Of a stretch of 6,227 bases of DNA, positions 499 through 6,227 are shown one piece after another (position 1 is the first letter of the stretch; each line of letters opens with the position of its first letter). The stretch is taken from the NCBI GenBank assembly GCA_031258055.1, contig JAIRNM010000422.1:1-6227 (forward strand), written 5' to 3'. The notes below the pieces were generated by a model. It saw nothing but the letters and a program-made list of their open reading frames with translations, searched no databases and was not told the origin of the DNA. A program made the position numbers and the translations under genes. This stretch comes from Bifidobacteriaceae bacterium (GTDB lineage Bacteria; Actinomycetota; Actinomycetes; Actinomycetales; WQXJ01).

Positions 499-828
499 GT
501 GAACAGCATGACCTTGAACCCGGCACGCCTATCGAATGATGACTGGGCGCGCGTGCGCGCGTTCCTGGACTCGGCGAAGAAGCGGGGCGAGGTGGTCGAC
601 TTCTCCTCTCGTGTGGAGCTGCTGACTCCGGCCGAAGTCGCCAAGCGGTTGGGAATGTCTCGGTCCACAGTGTTGCGCCGGATCGCTGATGGCGAGATCG
701 CCGCCACCAAGGTCGGCACCCACCACCGCATCCCGCTAAACGAGTACGAACGATACAGCCGCGAGCTGATGCGCCGCCTAGCGGAAGCGTCCGCTACCGA
801 CATTGAGGCCGAGTTGTTCGGTGAGTGA
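499..828 (+). CDS. Excisionase-type HTH antitoxin, module 1
   Basis: A 109-residue protein, probably the DNA-binding antitoxin of a VapBC-like toxin-antitoxin pair. Residues about 42-79 form an excisionase/MerR-like helix-turn-helix (HTH_17 type): LTPAEVAKRLGMSRSTVLRR, then a short wing with KVG and HRIP. The acidic C-terminal tail, ending IEAELFGE, is the likely toxin-binding part, by analogy with the second copy at 1668, which ends IRADLFGE. The GTG at 499 is chosen because a -10-like TACGCT lies 7 nt upstream; ATG at 508 is an in-frame alternative. The stop overlaps the toxin start (GTG 821) by 8 nt, implying translational coupling. Known family members bind DNA and often repress their own operon. 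The gene is intact although its toxin partner is broken as written. A phage or plasmid excisionase is a less likely reading because of the PIN gene that follows. Confidence 0.8.
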   Translation: MNSMTLNPARLSNDDWARVRAFLDSAKKRGEVVDFSSRVELLTPAEVAKRLGMSRSTVLRRIADGEIAATKVGTHHRIPLNEYERYSRELMRRLAEASATDIEAELFGE

Positions 829-1477
829 CGCGTCGCTGATCTTTCTCGACGCCAACGCGCTCGCCTCACCGGTCACCCGCACGCTGCTAATCGCCGGGGC
901 GCGCTGATGGTCTGCGGTGGACATGGTCGAGGCATGTCGAGGTCGAAGCTGATCGGCACGCCCGCGGACAAGCATCACGGACCTCGGTTGTCCGTGCAGA
1001 AATTCTCGGCACTGAACTGTCGCCGACCGCGCGGCGCACGGCAGGTCTGACAACTGGCACAGCACAGGATCGACAGGTGCTGGCTGACGCGATCCACGCG
1101 GGAGCCAGCTATCTGATCACGACCGATGTCGATGACTTCGCGCTCGCCTCGCGGCACATGGGATGAGCGCAGTGAACCCTGACTATTTCATGGCGTCACG
1201 GTTCACCGAGCAGGCTTATATAGAGGGCGTCGAGCTGCTCGCGGCCGTGCAGAAGAACCCGGCGCGGATAGCAAGCGAAATTCACCGGATGCTCGGCCAC
1301 AGGCATCCCCGCCTGGTCACAAGGTTCGCTGACGCTTACGACACGACACCGATCCCCGCCGACCCCGACCAGCCGAACACGATCTTCCGAGGCGTCGTCT
1401 GCATCCGCTGCGAGGCGCGTCTCAATGATGTGGCGGATTTGCGGCACGGGCTATGCCCAGAGCATCTGAGCCTCTGA
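821..1477 (+). pseudogene. PIN-domain toxin of module 1, two frameshifts
   Basis: A PIN-domain (VapC-like) ribonuclease gene broken as written. The first frame starts at GTG 821, overlaps the antitoxin stop, reads FLDANALASPVTRTLL with the first catalytic Asp, and stops at TGA 905. The frame then shifts at about 896-903, where one surplus base fits the GGGG run. The middle frame is open to TGA 1164 and carries TWSRHVEVEADRHARG (acidic pair), DRQVLADAIHAGASYLITTD and DVDDFA (remaining catalytic Asps). A second shift of opposite sign, one base missing near 1147, returns to the original frame: LAAHGMSAVNPDYF, then a C-terminal region with CIRC and CPEH ending at TGA 1475-1477. Corrected, it would encode about 218 residues, against 221 for the intact homologue at 2023-2688, collinear throughout. 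An ATG at 1163 can begin a 104-residue C-terminal fragment that lacks all catalytic residues and should not be taken as a gene in its own right. Whether this is true decay or consensus error cannot be decided from the sequence. Confidence 0.85.
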
Positions 1478-1491
1478 CCAAGCCCTTGCGC

Positions 1492-1535
1492 TTAGCCCAC
1501 GCCGCCCGGCCCACCATCGCCTCGCGTTCATTGAC
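1492..1535 (-). pseudogene. Tail relic of a DUF433-like antitoxin-type gene
   Basis: On the minus strand this reads VNEREAMVG and then loses frame by one base before a TAA. It aligns with the 3' end of the minus-strand gene ending at 4728 (VNEHEAMVG...), with 37 identical bases in 45 aligned columns including a one-base gap. The similarity ends abruptly at 1535, where a copy of the region upstream of the first antitoxin begins. I read it as a surviving fragment of a second copy of that gene family. At this length the match could still be partly chance, but shared frame, orientation and stop position argue against that. Confidence 0.5.
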
Positions 1536-1556
1536 AATGCGCAAGTGGTCATAGTG
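1531..1556. repeat. Direct repeat, copy 2
   Basis: Second copy of the 457-482 segment. It joins the DUF433-like tail relic on its left to the antitoxin 3' remnant on its right, so it marks a recombination junction. Confidence 0.8.
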
Positions 1557-1619
1557 AGCAAGTACGAACGATACAACCGCGAACTGATGCGCCCCATGAC
1601 CGAACCGTCAGCTCGCTAG
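1531..1619 (+). pseudogene. Internally deleted copy of first antitoxin region
   Basis: Bases 1531-1556 repeat 457-482, upstream of the first antitoxin, with one mismatch (22 consecutive identical bases from 1535). Bases 1561-1593 repeat 743-775 inside that antitoxin gene with two mismatches, and a weaker match continues. The roughly 260 bases between these parts in the original are missing, including the start and the whole HTH. GTACG occurs at both edges of the missing stretch in the original (485-489 and 744-748), a possible deletion point. A residual frame from GTG 1554 reads SKYERYNRELMR and stops at TAG 1617; it cannot make a functional antitoxin. This is evidence of past duplication of the module. 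Confidence 0.65.
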
Positions 1620-2725: not shown

Positions 2726-3206
2726 CTAAATCACAGAAGTACCAAACCTTGCCCAATCATTGAATTGCCACTCCCAAGCTCGGCACACTCGTTCTCTGGG
2801 TATGGCTTTATCGGTAGGGTCGACGAACATCAACCGTACGTAACGACTGTCGCCCACCACGATACCGAGCAAATATCGACCGCTCTCAGACTGCATGGCA
2901 CCCATCTCATTGTTTGTCATTGAGAAACGCGAGTCTAAGCGTTCTACCCGTTTCACCTCGATCATAGTGAGATCACCATCCGGGTTTTCGCCAACGAGGT
3001 CGTAGCCCAGGTTCTGCTTACTCACATCCCGGAGGTTCCAACCCCGACGATTGAGCCACTCGAGTACGCTCAGTTCAGCGGTTCTCCACTTCGCGACAAT
3101 TTCTGGAAACCCCTCTTCATGAGGGATTGCCGTATGGCGGATAAGTTCGATTGATGCAGGAGTCGCTGGAATCCCTAGCGGCGCAGAAGTCGCCGGCGTC
3201 AGCCCC
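2726..3206 (-). pseudogene. DUF3883 nuclease half, out of frame
   Basis: The authentic part of this frame runs from about LTPATSAPLG to the TAG at 2726-2728. It holds the whole DUF3883 domain, including NLGYDLVGENPDG, MIEVKRVE and SMTNNEMGAM, then strands around YLLGIVVG and VRLMFVDPT, and ends WARFGTSVI. An ATG at 3331 opens the same frame, but residues before about 3206 are antisense-quality sequence overlapping the ATPase frame, so that start is not credible. Confidence 0.7.
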
Positions 3207-4340
3207 GTTTGGGAAAAGATGGCGCAGTTCTTCTCGTTGCAACGGAATCGGAGAAATCGTAAAAGGCAGCGAAGCGATGGCCAGGTGATCCCGTAAGCGC
3301 GACAGAAAAACAAAATCTGTGCTGCCGCCACCAGACGCCAAGATTGAGCGTGGGTCTTCAGCCTGGATCATCAACGTCCATGCGCGCTCAAACCAGTGAT
3401 GTTGAGGATTCGAGAGCACTGCCGCGAACGCACCGGCTGCGTTTTCAAGAACTGTCTGAGTCGACGGGTCGCCCAAGACTGCATGAGTTCTAGATGGATC
3501 AGTGAGAAAATCCCCCGATATAACCAGGGGAACGCCCAGCGCGTCATCTACCGGCAAGAAACAAGCCAAGCGACCACGGATCGTCGTCAAAGACAAGGCC
3601 ATGTCATTAAGGGGTACTGCAATAGTTGCTTTTGCGTCTTGTAACACGGCGAACTCAGCAGTCCTACGATCCACGCTCAAGACCAGCCGGTCGGCATTCC
3701 GCTCCAAAGCGAAGGTCACGCTCGTATTCGGCGTCTCGATATTCAGTTCCCGGAGGTTGCGAAGGAACAAGAGGGATAGTGGATTGATCGCGCCTAGGAT
3801 TTGACGATCTTCCACCTGATTGTTCGGGGTTATCGTAAAAGAGGCTCCGACATTCACGTCCGAACGGGCAACCTGAGTAGGAATGCGAGTGAGAGGCACA
3901 CTGCGCCTGTCGACAGAATCGCCAGCCGCAGCTAGCAGACGAGCGGCCTCCTCCCGGTCAAAGGTAAAGCTCGTTCTAGCTGACTCGACCTTGACTCTTG
4001 ATGCGACCGCCGCCAACGCCTTGAACCCGATCCCACGGTATCCGATGGACTCGCCACGAATCTTGGTTGAACTCGCACTTCTGCACAACCCCTCGGCGTC
4101 GGCTCGGTCAAACGGGCGGCCATTGTTAGACCAAGACACCAAGCCGTCTGACCGAATCTGGACGTTAACGCTCGTGGCGCCAGCGTCATCAGAGTTCTGC
4201 AAGAGTTCATACTGAACGCGATCACGATAAGTCGCTGCCAACACCGTCTCAAGCCGAGCCAACTCCGAGAACATACCTGGAGCCTGCTCATATTCTCCCA
4301 CCAGCGCCGCTTGAAGCGTTGTAACCGACTCCAATAGCAT
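3117..4340 (-). CDS. ATPase half as written (sacsin-like GHKL)
   Basis: As the sequence stands, translation from ATG 4340 gives 407 residues. Residues 1 to about 380 are sacsin-like ATPase and linker; the last 30 or so (after HLFPNG) are out-of-frame residues without family character, ending at TGA 3117-3119. The truncated product keeps the ATP-binding motifs but lacks the nuclease. A GGGGA about 11 nt upstream of the ATG may be its ribosome binding site. If the indel is a sequence error this entry is replaced by the full fusion at 2726-4340. Confidence 0.6.
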   Translation of the reverse strand: MLLESVTTLQAALVGEYEQAPGMFSELARLETVLAATYRDRVQYELLQNSDDAGATSVNVQIRSDGLVSWSNNGRPFDRADAEGLCRSASSTKIRGESIGYRGIGFKALAAVASRVKVESARTSFTFDREEAARLLAAAGDSVDRRSVPLTRIPTQVARSDVNVGASFTITPNNQVEDRQILGAINPLSLLFLRNLRELNIETPNTSVTFALERNADRLVLSVDRRTAEFAVLQDAKATIAVPLNDMALSLTTIRGRLACFLPVDDALGVPLVISGDFLTDPSRTHAVLGDPSTQTVLENAAGAFAAVLSNPQHHWFERAWTLMIQAEDPRSILASGGGSTDFVFLSRLRDHLAIASLPFTISPIPLQREELRHLFPNGADAGDFCAARDSSDSCINRTYPPYGNPS

Positions 4341-4343
4341 TAA

Positions 4344-4727
4344 TCAGCGGTCCCCAATGCGCGCCACAATGCGGTGAACCGGCGCCGGATAATCTTCTAA
4401 CTTAAAGTCCACACCAATTAGCCAGCGTGGCGAACGCGAAGGCATATTCCCGCACTCATCGACATGAATGCATATACTTATGGCGCCACGCAGTTCATCG
4501 AGACGGAATCCGGTGTCATCAAGAATGTCAAAAGAGAACTCAGGGGCATCATATTCAAAGGGCGCCGCCTTGGCAACAGTCAGATCACTCTCCACCCATT
4601 TTCGCTCTCGAAGCATCCAATCTTGAAGCAGTTCGTCGGCAGATCCAAAGACCACTCCTCCGGACGCAAGAATACGCCCTTTTCGGTCGTCCAGCTTATC
4701 AATTATACGGTGCGTGAAAGCTTCCAT
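4344..4727 (-). CDS. Unrecognised 127-residue protein, middle gene of block
   Basis: I do not recognise this protein. It is 127 residues, acidic, with no signal peptide or membrane segment. The N-terminus (MEAFTHRIIDKLDDRKGRIL) looks helical, followed by FGSADELLQDWMLRERKW, then mostly strand-like sequence with FSFDILDDTGF, GAISICIHVDECG, RWLIGVDFKLEDYP and VHRIVARIGDR. Its ATG follows the TAA of the upstream gene with no gap (TAAATG on the coding strand), and its TGA is 3 nt before the ATPase start, so it is almost certainly translationally coupled to both. The fixed place before an ATPase-nuclease gene suggests an accessory or regulatory subunit. There is no further evidence for function. 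Confidence 0.65.
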   Translation of the reverse strand: MEAFTHRIIDKLDDRKGRILASGGVVFGSADELLQDWMLRERKWVESDLTVAKAAPFEYDAPEFSFDILDDTGFRLDELRGAISICIHVDECGNMPSRSPRWLIGVDFKLEDYPAPVHRIVARIGDR

Positions 4728-5024
4728 TTAGCCCAAGCCGCACTGGCCAACCATTGCCTCATGCTCATTGACGTCGATCCAGACATCAATCTCTTCCGGG
4801 TACAGCCCGTAACACTCAAGGGCGACGACAACGTCGCACTCCTTCAAACCCAGTTGTTCAGCCAGCCCGGCCGCGTTCCCGTTCGACTCAACCAGACCCC
4901 TAATCCGAGCAACGATCTCCCATGCACCCAAACCTCCAACCGCCGAACGGCCCGCACCAACCAGTCCTTGCTTGAACTCAATACCAAGAACTTGGCGCCC
5001 AACAGCGGCCGCACACATTGCCAC
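4728..5024 (-). CDS. DUF433-like, antitoxin-type small protein
   Basis: A protein of 98 residues (GTG 5024) or 96 (ATG 5018). The C-terminal half, AWEIVARIRGLVESNG, LAEQLGLKECDVVVALECYG and LYPEEIDVWIDVNEHEAMV, resembles the end of DUF433-like, VapB-type antitoxins: a helix-turn-helix, an alanine-Tyr helix and a PEEID tail. This is family recognition by eye and is only moderately sure. The N-terminal part (CAAAVGRQVLGIEFKQGLVG) is strand-like. The frame is open upstream to a TAA at 5061-5063 without another usual start, so the N-terminus could be shortened relative to relatives. It is the first gene of the three-gene minus block and may serve as its regulator. A relic of the same tail lies at 1492-1535. 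No PIN toxin of the usual partner type follows it. Confidence 0.6.
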   Translation of the reverse strand: MAMCAAAVGRQVLGIEFKQGLVGAGRSAVGGLGAWEIVARIRGLVESNGNAAGLAEQLGLKECDVVVALECYGLYPEEIDVWIDVNEHEAMVGQCGLG

Positions 5025-5084: not shown

Positions 5085-6227
5085 ATGGGCCGTTCGCTGG
5101 CGCGCGGGGGCTGGTCCCGTCTACTGCGTTCGCGCCACCGCTTGCCGCCCAGCCTAGATGAGCAGATTGAAAAGCTGAAATGGAGGCTGGTCCGTCCCCC
5201 AGTTGAACTTGAGTTGGCGCTGGTGCCAACTGGATCTCGGCCGCGCACTCTGATTGCGCCCGCTAACTTCGCTGGTCAGGGGCACGCTTGGGCTGAAGCC
5301 TTGAACCGTTATGGCCCCGGCAGCGCGGTGAACTGGGTGTTCAGCGCCAATCCGGTGTTCGGCTTCGCGGCCGATTACACCCAGCCGATCTGCTTGGCGG
5401 CGGCGCCGAAGTCCTTCCAGTCCGCCCAGTTCGCTCTTGTCACGGATCATTTTCAAGCCGTCGTGTTGGAGTCCGGGCGGCCGGTGTTCGGGCGGTTGTT
5501 CGGCCATAGCGCCGCCCGGGAAGCCTTGGTGTTGAACACAGTCGGTTTGACGGTGGCGGTTCTTTGGCATGGTTCTGATATCCGCCTGCCCTCGCGTCAC
5601 ATTGCCACTCATTCGCTCAGCCCTTACGCCTTGGCGCCGCTGCGCCAAAGAGCCGCTGAACTAGAATCGACGGCCCGGCGTAACCGCCGTTCGATGCTTC
5701 ACTTGGACCTGCTGCAACTGGTTTCCACCCCCGATCTGCTATCCCAGGTTCCCGGCGCCGAATGGTGCCCAGTAGTGGTGGCCGCCGAACTGCTGGATTC
5801 GGGTGCGGAGGAACGGCGCCAGTCGGCACCGGCTCTGACGCAGACTCCGGGGAAACCCCCGCGCGTCGTTCACGTGCCGTCCAACCCGTTGATCAAAGGC
5901 ACCGATCTAGCCGACCCGGTGTTACGCCGCCTGGCCGAGCGCGGCCTGATCGACTATGTACTAGCTGAGGGCATCACGGCGGCCGCGGTCTTAGAGTTGT
6001 ACGCCAGCGCCGATGTTGTCATAGACCAGTTCCGTCTCGGCATCTACGGTGTGGCCGCTGCCGAGGCGATGGCCTTAGGGCGTCTGGTGGTCTCCGATGT
6101 GGACCAGTCGGTTTACGATGCCGTACAAGCCCGCACCGGCTTGACGTTGCCGGTCTGCCAAACCCCGGCCGCCGAACTAGAACAACGAATCGAAGACATC
6201 TGCCGCAACCCAGAACCCTACCGGCGC
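5085..6227 (+). CDS. GT-B glycosyltransferase (group 1-like), 3' truncated by window
   Basis: The frame is open from ATG 5085 to the last base, 381 codons without a stop, so the gene continues beyond the window. It looks like a GT-B fold glycosyltransferase, transferring a sugar from an activated donor, probably in cell-surface glycan synthesis at the cytoplasmic side. The N-terminal domain contains RTLIAPANFAGQGHAWAEAL (55-74), a Rossmann-like start, then AVLWHGSDIRLPSRH (158-172) and a LVSTPDLL turn (212-219). The C-terminal domain contains RVVHVPSNPLIKGTD (260-274), ASADVVIDQFRLGIYG (307-322) and AAAEAMALGRLVVSDV (324-339), the usual nucleotide-sugar binding segment of group 1 (GT4-like) enzymes, with E327 in the expected place. 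There is no signal peptide or membrane segment. The start is set by AGGAGG at 5076-5081. Donor and acceptor cannot be told. Confidence 0.85.
   Translation, partial: MGRSLARGGWSRLLRSRHRLPPSLDEQIEKLKWRLVRPPVELELALVPTGSRPRTLIAPANFAGQGHAWAEALNRYGPGSAVNWVFSANPVFGFAADYTQPICLAAAPKSFQSAQFALVTDHFQAVVLESGRPVFGRLFGHSAAREALVLNTVGLTVAVLWHGSDIRLPSRHIATHSLSPYALAPLRQRAAELESTARRNRRSMLHLDLLQLVSTPDLLSQVPGAEWCPVVVAAELLDSGAEERRQSAPALTQTPGKPPRVVHVPSNPLIKGTDLADPVLRRLAERGLIDYVLAEGITAAAVLELYASADVVIDQFRLGIYGVAAAEAMALGRLVVSDVDQSVYDAVQARTGLTLPVCQTPAAELEQRIEDICRNPEPYRR

What the first reader, a model, noticed from the sequence alone, without database searches (positions are those of the whole stretch)
2726..5024. Compact three-gene block: antitoxin-like protein, unknown protein, ATPase-nuclease fusion
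Gene spacings of 0 and 3 nt show a single unit. It ends in a sacsin-like GHKL ATPase joined to a DUF3883 PD-(D/E)XK-type domain, an architecture expected of a nucleic-acid-targeting defence effector, and starts with an antitoxin-like gene. It lies beside two toxin-antitoxin modules. I know of no named system with this exact order, so it is a candidate undescribed defence system. Architecture is seen; function is inferred.
Basis: partly seen in the sequence, partly recalled or inferred. Interest (0 to 1): 0.75.

Follow-up and report, generated by a model that had tools for sequence, protein, structure and literature searches.

The report
Wreck of a two-gene defence system
This stretch holds truncated, out-of-frame and so probably dead remains of a two-gene bacterial module, an Hsp90-like ATPase joined to a predicted DNA-cutting domain plus a small partner protein, which survives whole in many other bacteria and is likely a short cousin of the anti-phage system Tiamat; the antitoxin-like gene in front of it is a fragment of something else.

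Summary
Right protein family, wrong system. (1) The "ATPase-DUF3883 fusion" is not one frame here: the ATPase (3201-4340, -) and DUF3883 (2726-3109, -) lie in different frames, and about 200 nt that relatives have between them are missing. (2) The 127-residue "unknown protein" is the end of a ~295-residue upstream partner (56% identity to residues 169-294 of P0197); the first ~168 residues were not found in the MAG. (3) The 98-residue gene is a truncated, frame-shifted antitoxin; its paralogue in the same MAG keeps its N-terminus and a DUF5615 toxin. That antitoxin family is at 0 of 81 related loci. So the 0-nt junction reads as a deletion scar, and the trio is no system. What is real is a two-gene module elsewhere: a partner gene adjoins the ATPase-DUF3883 gene at 63 of 78 loci (32 of 47 not used as seeds; 0 of 20 control regions), and partner type follows the ATPase tree. 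The effector matches both ends of PADLOC's TmtA (Tiamat) but is about half as long. Defence function and mechanism are inferred. The window copy is probably dead; the intact family is a candidate new variant.

The parts
3201..4340 (-). Sacsin-type GHKL ATPase part of the effector gene, homologous to residues 1-~378 of ~603-aa relatives; N-box YELLQNSDDA and G-box GYRGIGFK intact; the ORF then runs 27 more residues to a stop at 3117-3119
   Evidence: tblastn of P0002/P0005/P0010/P0029, NCBIfam/Pfam/PADLOC, motif positions, ORF length
3110..3200 (-). Scar in the effector gene: 91 nt where near relatives have 96-98 codons; the reading frame changes here
   Evidence: 91 nt, remainder 1; seven near relatives checked have 96-98 residues; residues 385-454 of P0005 missing
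2726..3109 (-). DUF3883/NOV_C (predicted PD-(D/E)XK nuclease) part, in a different frame from the ATPase; D...ExK residues intact
4344..4727 (-). 127-aa ORF = C-terminal fragment (about residues 168-295) of the ~295-residue two-domain beta-sandwich partner; domain 1 and the start of domain 2 are missing
   Evidence: hmmsearch E 4e-29; 56% identity to P0197 169-294; own-MAG searches find only this piece; model of intact partner
4728..5024 (-). 98-aa ORF = antitoxin remnant lacking its RHH N-terminus and toxin; 53-54% identical to the intact paralogue in G000:C138
4721..4747 (-). Antitoxin tail (ASAAWAKWK, against ARAAWAKRK in the paralogue) in a different frame from the 98-aa ORF, running into the start of the 127-aa ORF: frameshift plus inferred deletion junction
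   Evidence: three-frame translation and paralogue sequence

Best explanation
The block is a truncated, frame-shifted and therefore likely non-functional copy of a two-gene module, an Hsp90-like (sacsin-type) ATPase fused to a predicted DUF3883 nuclease and an upstream beta-sandwich partner, that would act against phage, abutting an unrelated antitoxin fragment. SHOWN by calls: the losses relative to intact relatives, the frame change, and the adjacency of a partner gene to the ATPase gene elsewhere. INFERRED: that deletions after horizontal acquisition made this state, including one that fused the antitoxin's tail to the partner's second domain and removed the toxin and the partner's first domain. 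INFERRED mechanism of the intact module: the partner binds a phage-derived or DNA cue; this lets the two ATPase subunits close on ATP as in MutL/Hsp90, which positions or unlocks the C-terminal nuclease to cut nucleic acid. Partner and ATPase lineages are matched, as expected if they touch each other.
For: Frame and length: (window 91 nt against 93-109 codons in the 61 measurable of 119 listed relatives; 114 of the 119 have at least 570 aa, and 113 carry both motif sets on one chain). Partner fragment: E 4e-29; 56% identity to residues 169-294 of P0197, from the start codon on; 77 partner homologues; 254-435 aa, median 299; no other part of the partner in the MAG. Antitoxin fragment. Trio absent: 0 of 81 loci. 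Duo real: 63 of 78 loci with an ATPase N-terminus have a partner-family gene adjoining (54 just upstream, 9 downstream only; 32 of the 47 that were not seeds; 0 of 20 control regions); partner label needs 9 changes on the ATPase tree against 41.5 shuffled, and the 8 'a'-partner ATPases plus the window's form one supported clade. General sequencing error is less likely: the adjoining frame at 5085-6227 is open for 1.1 kb. Effector relatedness to defence: TmtA models. E45, N49, D52, G103, G105 and D513, E527, K529 are invariant in 21 of 21 aligned relatives. Fold: Hsp90/MutL/GyrB/sacsin matches for the ATPase. Patchiness: at E 1e-60, 2 of 396 genomes of the order and 1 of 396 of the phylum, own genome included in both.
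Against: One short contig of a 77%-complete MAG; no reads, so a misassembly cannot be excluded. No close relative (best 57% identity), so neither an intact sister copy nor neutral decay can be shown. Residues of both predicted active sites are intact in the fragments, so loss of function is not demonstrated. 15 of 78 loci have no adjoining partner from my four profile sets (in L042, L044 and L052 a 'd'-type hit lies further upstream). Partner sets a and c show no significant profile similarity, so one shared partner fold is not proven. No experiment links this family to phage defence; TmtA matches cover only the two ends of those models; the neighbour test was inconclusive.
Confidence: 0.72

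Rival explanations
1. Assembly artefact: the organism carries an intact two-gene module and the MAG assembly dropped two internal stretches and misjoined an antitoxin.
For: MAG of 439 contigs, 77% complete; the contig is only 6,227 bases. The missing parts could lie in the unassembled part.
Against: Several lesions of different kinds lie along one contig, including a broken toxin and tail-only relics on the other side, while a 1.1-kb frame and one toxin-antitoxin pair stay open. Own-MAG searches find no second copy or missing piece of the effector or the partner.
Confidence: 0.14
2. A working split system: the ATPase ORF and the DUF3883 ORF are made as two proteins or by frameshifting, with a single-domain partner.
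For: Predicted active-site residues are intact in both pieces; the partner-ATPase spacing of 3 nt is close to that of many relatives.
Against: About 65-70 residues of a confidently modelled, mostly helical segment (pLDDT 84-95 in blocks 381-450) are gone; 114 of 119 listed relatives have at least 570 aa; the partner fragment starts inside a strand of domain 2; the search with the 127-aa ORF found no other short partner (only 14 candidates).
Confidence: 0.06
3. One reading: an intact three-gene defence system with antitoxin, unknown protein and ATPase-nuclease.
For: Gene order and spacing in this contig.
Against: Antitoxin family at 0 of 81 related loci; all three components are truncated or frame-shifted.
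Confidence: 0.02
4. The parent two-gene module is not anti-phage but a stress, chaperone or DNA-repair device; the Hsp90/MutL-like ATPase serves proteins or the cell's own DNA.
For: The ATPase fold matches Hsp90, MutL, gyrase B and sacsin; no experiment ties this short family to phage; only 1 plasmid record and no phage record matched.
Against: Patchy distribution, a tree that mixes phyla, one copy on a viral contig, the TmtA relationship, and neighbours that match type I methylase, DrmD, DpdE, PD-T4-2, HerA, SIR2 and other defence models; but control neighbours also matched Cas genes.
Confidence: 0.25

Closest known systems
Tiamat (TmtA, PADLOC models PDLC03964-PDLC03972)
   Same: N-terminal sacsin/GHKL ATPase and C-terminal DUF3883 match the two ends of TmtA profiles (P0002: PDLC03968 E 1e-30, residues 11-215 to profile 44-246 of 1486; L049's effector also the end of PDLC03969).
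   Different: Intact effectors are about 600-770 aa against 1063-1782 profile positions; the middle of TmtA is not matched; here there is a small partner gene, and none of the 5 intact partners scanned matched a PADLOC model at E 0.01 or a Pfam family above its cut-off.
Plant NO VEIN / human sacsin
   Same: Sacsin-type ATPase domain and the NO VEIN C-terminal domain (PF25794, PF13020); sacsin SR1 is among the fold matches. A survey found its plant 'Tiamat' hits to lie on plant sequences (PMC12409356, passages read); that these are NO VEIN genes is my inference.
   Different: Bacterial, short, two-gene; no HEPN or DnaJ family among the Pfam hits.
RHH antitoxin + DUF5615 PIN-like toxin pair
   Same: The 98-aa ORF is homologous to the antitoxin of such pairs in the same MAG and in G015 and G009.
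   Different: Window copy lacks the RHH domain, the in-frame tail and the toxin.
PDC-S36, PD-T4-1, Hma (HmaA)
   Same: Share the DUF3883-like C-terminal stretch with weak scores.
   Different: Match covers only about 50-105 residues of the effector's end.

Membership tests
Tiamat | N-terminal sacsin/GHKL-type ATPase matching TmtA models | tested here: met
   (window ATPase PDLC03972 E 3e-26; P0002 PDLC03968 E 1e-30)
Tiamat | C-terminal DUF3883 region matching the end of TmtA models | tested here: met
   (window ORF 2726-3331: PDLC03964 positions 1432-1503, E 4e-5)
Tiamat | Full-length TmtA (about 1,060-1,780 profile positions) with its middle region | tested here: not met
   intact relatives are about 600-770 aa; for this family's loci matches to PDLC03964 stop by about position 540 and resume near 1,190-1,450
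Tiamat | Single-gene system (recalled, from no call) | tested here: not met
   partner gene adjoins at 63 of 78 loci
Tiamat | Shown anti-phage activity | not testable with these tools
   needs a bench assay
Sacsin/DUF3883 two-gene family (unnamed, described here) | Single frame holding both ATPase and DUF3883 | tested here: not met
   window: two frames and ~200 nt missing
Sacsin/DUF3883 two-gene family (unnamed, described here) | Partner of the clade-matched type immediately upstream | tested here: met
   'a'-type fragment 3 nt upstream; ATPase falls in the 'a' clade; but only the C-terminal domain remains
PD-(D/E)XK nuclease | D...ExK residues on an alpha-beta-beta-beta-alpha-beta core | tested here: inconclusive
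   D513, E527, K529 invariant in 21 of 21 and the order of elements in the model fits, but the domain was not searched on its own against known folds; the pattern itself is recalled
RHH/DUF5615 toxin-antitoxin module (window 4728-5024) | RHH N-terminus and adjoining PIN-like toxin | tested here: not met
   paralogue has both (RHH by weak, sub-cut-off Pfam matches); window has neither

The most novel reading that the evidence does not exclude
The parent of this wreck is an undescribed two-gene anti-phage system found across bacterial phyla: a short Tiamat/NO VEIN-type Hsp90-like ATPase-nuclease licensed by a small, lineage-matched adaptor (two-domain beta-sandwich in Actinomycetota, other small proteins elsewhere) that acts as the infection sensor.
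Probability: 0.42. Interest if true: 0.62.

Novelty: new variant of a known kind. Interest (0 to 1): 0.36.

Why it matters
For this genome, it shows that a tidy-looking operon in raw sequence can be a deletion scar, and that the trio should not be cloned or counted as a defence system. For the field, the intact relatives give a conserved two-gene set with a matched adaptor, about half the size of TmtA, which would make the unknown mechanism of Tiamat-type (sacsin/NO VEIN) ATPases testable: what the adaptor senses, and whether ATP-driven closure releases a nuclease.

Tried and rejected

Limits of my counts. Neighbour enrichment did not complete: the PADLOC scans of 112 test and 113 control neighbours give family tallies (120 against 74 families at E 1e-15, 25 shown of each), not counts of proteins or loci; the control list shown is mostly Cas models, from how many regions the tally does not tell; gene calls came from my own crude caller, which gave only one control gene in L122. 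The 31 partner seeds were chosen by position, so the fair number is 32 of 47 non-seed loci with an ATPase N-terminus (23 upstream, 9 downstream). The loci are the best 80 of 102 confirmed. Rows dropped: 3 of 81 loci without the ATPase N-terminus; 10 of 81 loci in the tree (those 3 and 7 with under 450 residues); 58 of 119 relatives in the spacer count because my motif patterns missed them.

Full report
WHAT IS IN THE WINDOW. The window is the whole of contig C167 (6,227 bases) of a 2.39-Mb, 439-contig, 77%-complete MAG. But the ATPase and DUF3883 do not form one ORF: the ATPase frame ends at 3117 and DUF3883 is in another frame (2726-3331).

THE EFFECTOR GENE IS BROKEN. A search of 5.8 billion proteins gave 376 relatives, of which the best 120 were listed. 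Of the 119 listed besides the window's own, 114 have at least 570 residues and 113 carry an ATPase G-box and the nuclease motif on one chain. tblastn of four of them against the window gives two pieces in two frames, with the stretch between absent. Between FPNGA and FPEIVAKW the window has 91 nt; the 61 relatives that my patterns could measure have 93-109 codons, and the seven near ones checked 96-98. With P0005 as query the pieces meet at 3189/3190 and residues 385-454 are missing. So about 200 nt are missing and the frame is lost. In the model of an intact relative (P0002, mean pLDDT 85.5) the missing part is mostly confident helices, not loose linker. Residues of both predicted active sites remain.

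THE 127-RESIDUE PROTEIN IS A FRAGMENT. Searched alone it finds only itself. Reading upstream of the effector in other actinobacteria revealed a ~300-residue gene. A profile of six such genes matches the window ORF at E 4e-29 over its last third (one of the six was the longer L002 protein). A search with that family gave 77 proteins of 254-435 aa; the window ORF aligns from its first residue with residues 169-294 of P0197 at 56% identity. The intact partner is modelled as a beta-rich protein that I read as two beta-sandwich domains (mean pLDDT 92.7, pTM 0.89; separate fold matches to 18-129 and 161-295); the window keeps the second domain without the start of its first strand. The MAG holds no other part of the partner that searches with L003's partner or P0197 could find (P0197's match runs a few residues past the start codon, through a stop).

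THE ANTITOXIN IS A FRAGMENT TOO. The 98-aa ORF is 54% identical to part of a protein in contig C138 of the same MAG and more distantly to proteins in G015 and G009 (4 of 39 genomes had a match, the fourth, G030, weak and showing no such pair). Those are ~140-aa proteins with a ribbon-helix-helix N-terminus (Pfam RHH/CopG matches below their cut-offs) followed directly by a DUF5615 PIN-like toxin. The window copy lacks the N-terminus and the toxin, and its tail continues in another frame (ASAAWAKWK at 4747-4721) up to the start of the partner fragment. The 0-nt junction is thus best read as a deletion scar.

MORE DEBRIS NEARBY. The toxin of the first toxin-antitoxin module is interrupted by stops; a 20-residue tail of the same RHH/DUF5615 antitoxin family lies at 1473-1532 on the minus strand; and 1531-1613 repeats the leader (457-482) and the antitoxin end (743-795) of the first module with the middle missing. 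The frame at 5085-6227 and the second module stay open. G+C of the effector and partner pieces is 0.52-0.55 against 0.63-0.64 for the flanking genes, which fits horizontal acquisition.

THE PARENT MODULE ELSEWHERE. Of 102 confirmed genome loci the best 80 were kept, plus one viral contig. With four partner profiles built from 31 seeds, 54 loci have a partner immediately upstream and 9 only downstream; 15 have none adjoining and 3 lack the ATPase N-terminus; 20 arbitrary regions from the same genomes give no hit. Because seeds were chosen by position, the fair figure is 32 of 47 non-seed loci. Set b is set c with an extra N-terminal part (both profiles hit the same proteins); set d looks different; sets a and c show no significant profile similarity. 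On an ATPase tree of 71 loci plus the window, partner type needs 9 changes against 41.5 for shuffled labels; the window falls beside Rhodococcus koreensis within the 'a' clade. The tree mixes phyla; one archaeon (Methanoregula) is in it, in a clade without any of the four partners. The full-length type is rare: at E 1e-60, 2 of 396 genomes of the order and 1 of 396 of the phylum, the window's own included in both.

WHAT IT WORKS LIKE. PADLOC's TmtA (Tiamat) models match the ATPase end and the DUF3883 end, but the middle of TmtA is not matched and there is a partner gene, so I do not file it as Tiamat. The mechanism of Tiamat is given as unknown in two papers whose passages I read (PMC10482375, PMC12926258). 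DUF3883 was called a novel restriction-endonuclease domain in PMC3710099 (passages read). The ATPase model matches Hsp90, MutL, gyrase B and the sacsin SR1 domain. From this I infer that the ATPase closes as a dimer on ATP and controls the nuclease, with the partner as sensor or gate. None of these steps is shown.

DEFENCE NEIGHBOURS. Among 112 neighbours of 20 loci the scan hit models such as DpdE, type I methylases, DrmD, PD-T4-2, Hhe, SIR2, HerA, HEC-06 and MADS. Among 113 control neighbours it hit mostly Cas models, with a reverse transcriptase, dGTPase and PDC-S03. The tool gives family tallies, not locus counts, so this neither shows nor excludes enrichment.

VERDICT. The three-gene block is not a system. 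It is most likely a dead copy of a two-gene Tiamat-like module beside an antitoxin fragment. The intact family deserves a test.

Noticed in passing
window 821-1477 (+): Toxin of the first excisionase-HTH/PIN-like module is broken by several stops and frame changes relative to the open toxin at 2023-2688 (35% identity over the gapped match).
   Followed up: partly
window 1531-1613 (+): Relic third copy of that module: leader (96% to 457-482) followed closely by the antitoxin end (83% to 743-795), middle missing.
   Followed up: partly
window 1473-1532 (-): Tail-only remnant (NEREAMVGRAAWAKRKGLVR) of the RHH/DUF5615 antitoxin family, 75% identical to the C138 paralogue.
   Followed up: partly
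L118:1112-1977 (G000:C138): Intact antitoxin plus DUF5615 PIN-like toxin elsewhere in the same MAG.
   Followed up: yes
L006:7944-8828 (-) and upstream of 5986: Nocardia vaccinii has two 'a'-type partner matches around one effector, one upstream and one downstream on the other strand.
   Followed up: no
L018, L025, L010, L004: Other actinobacterial copies also look broken or partial (Streptomyces philanthi, S. buecherae, Rhodococcus opacus; partner in two frames in Actinomadura sp. J1-007), so decay of this module may be common.
   Followed up: partly
L017, L019, L036, L054, L065, L068: A supported effector clade (six loci, several phyla and one archaeon) has none of the four partner types; its partner, if any, is unknown.
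   Followed up: no
window 5085-6227 (+): Open frame running off the contig, read by eye as a glycosyltransferase (no family scan made).
   Followed up: no
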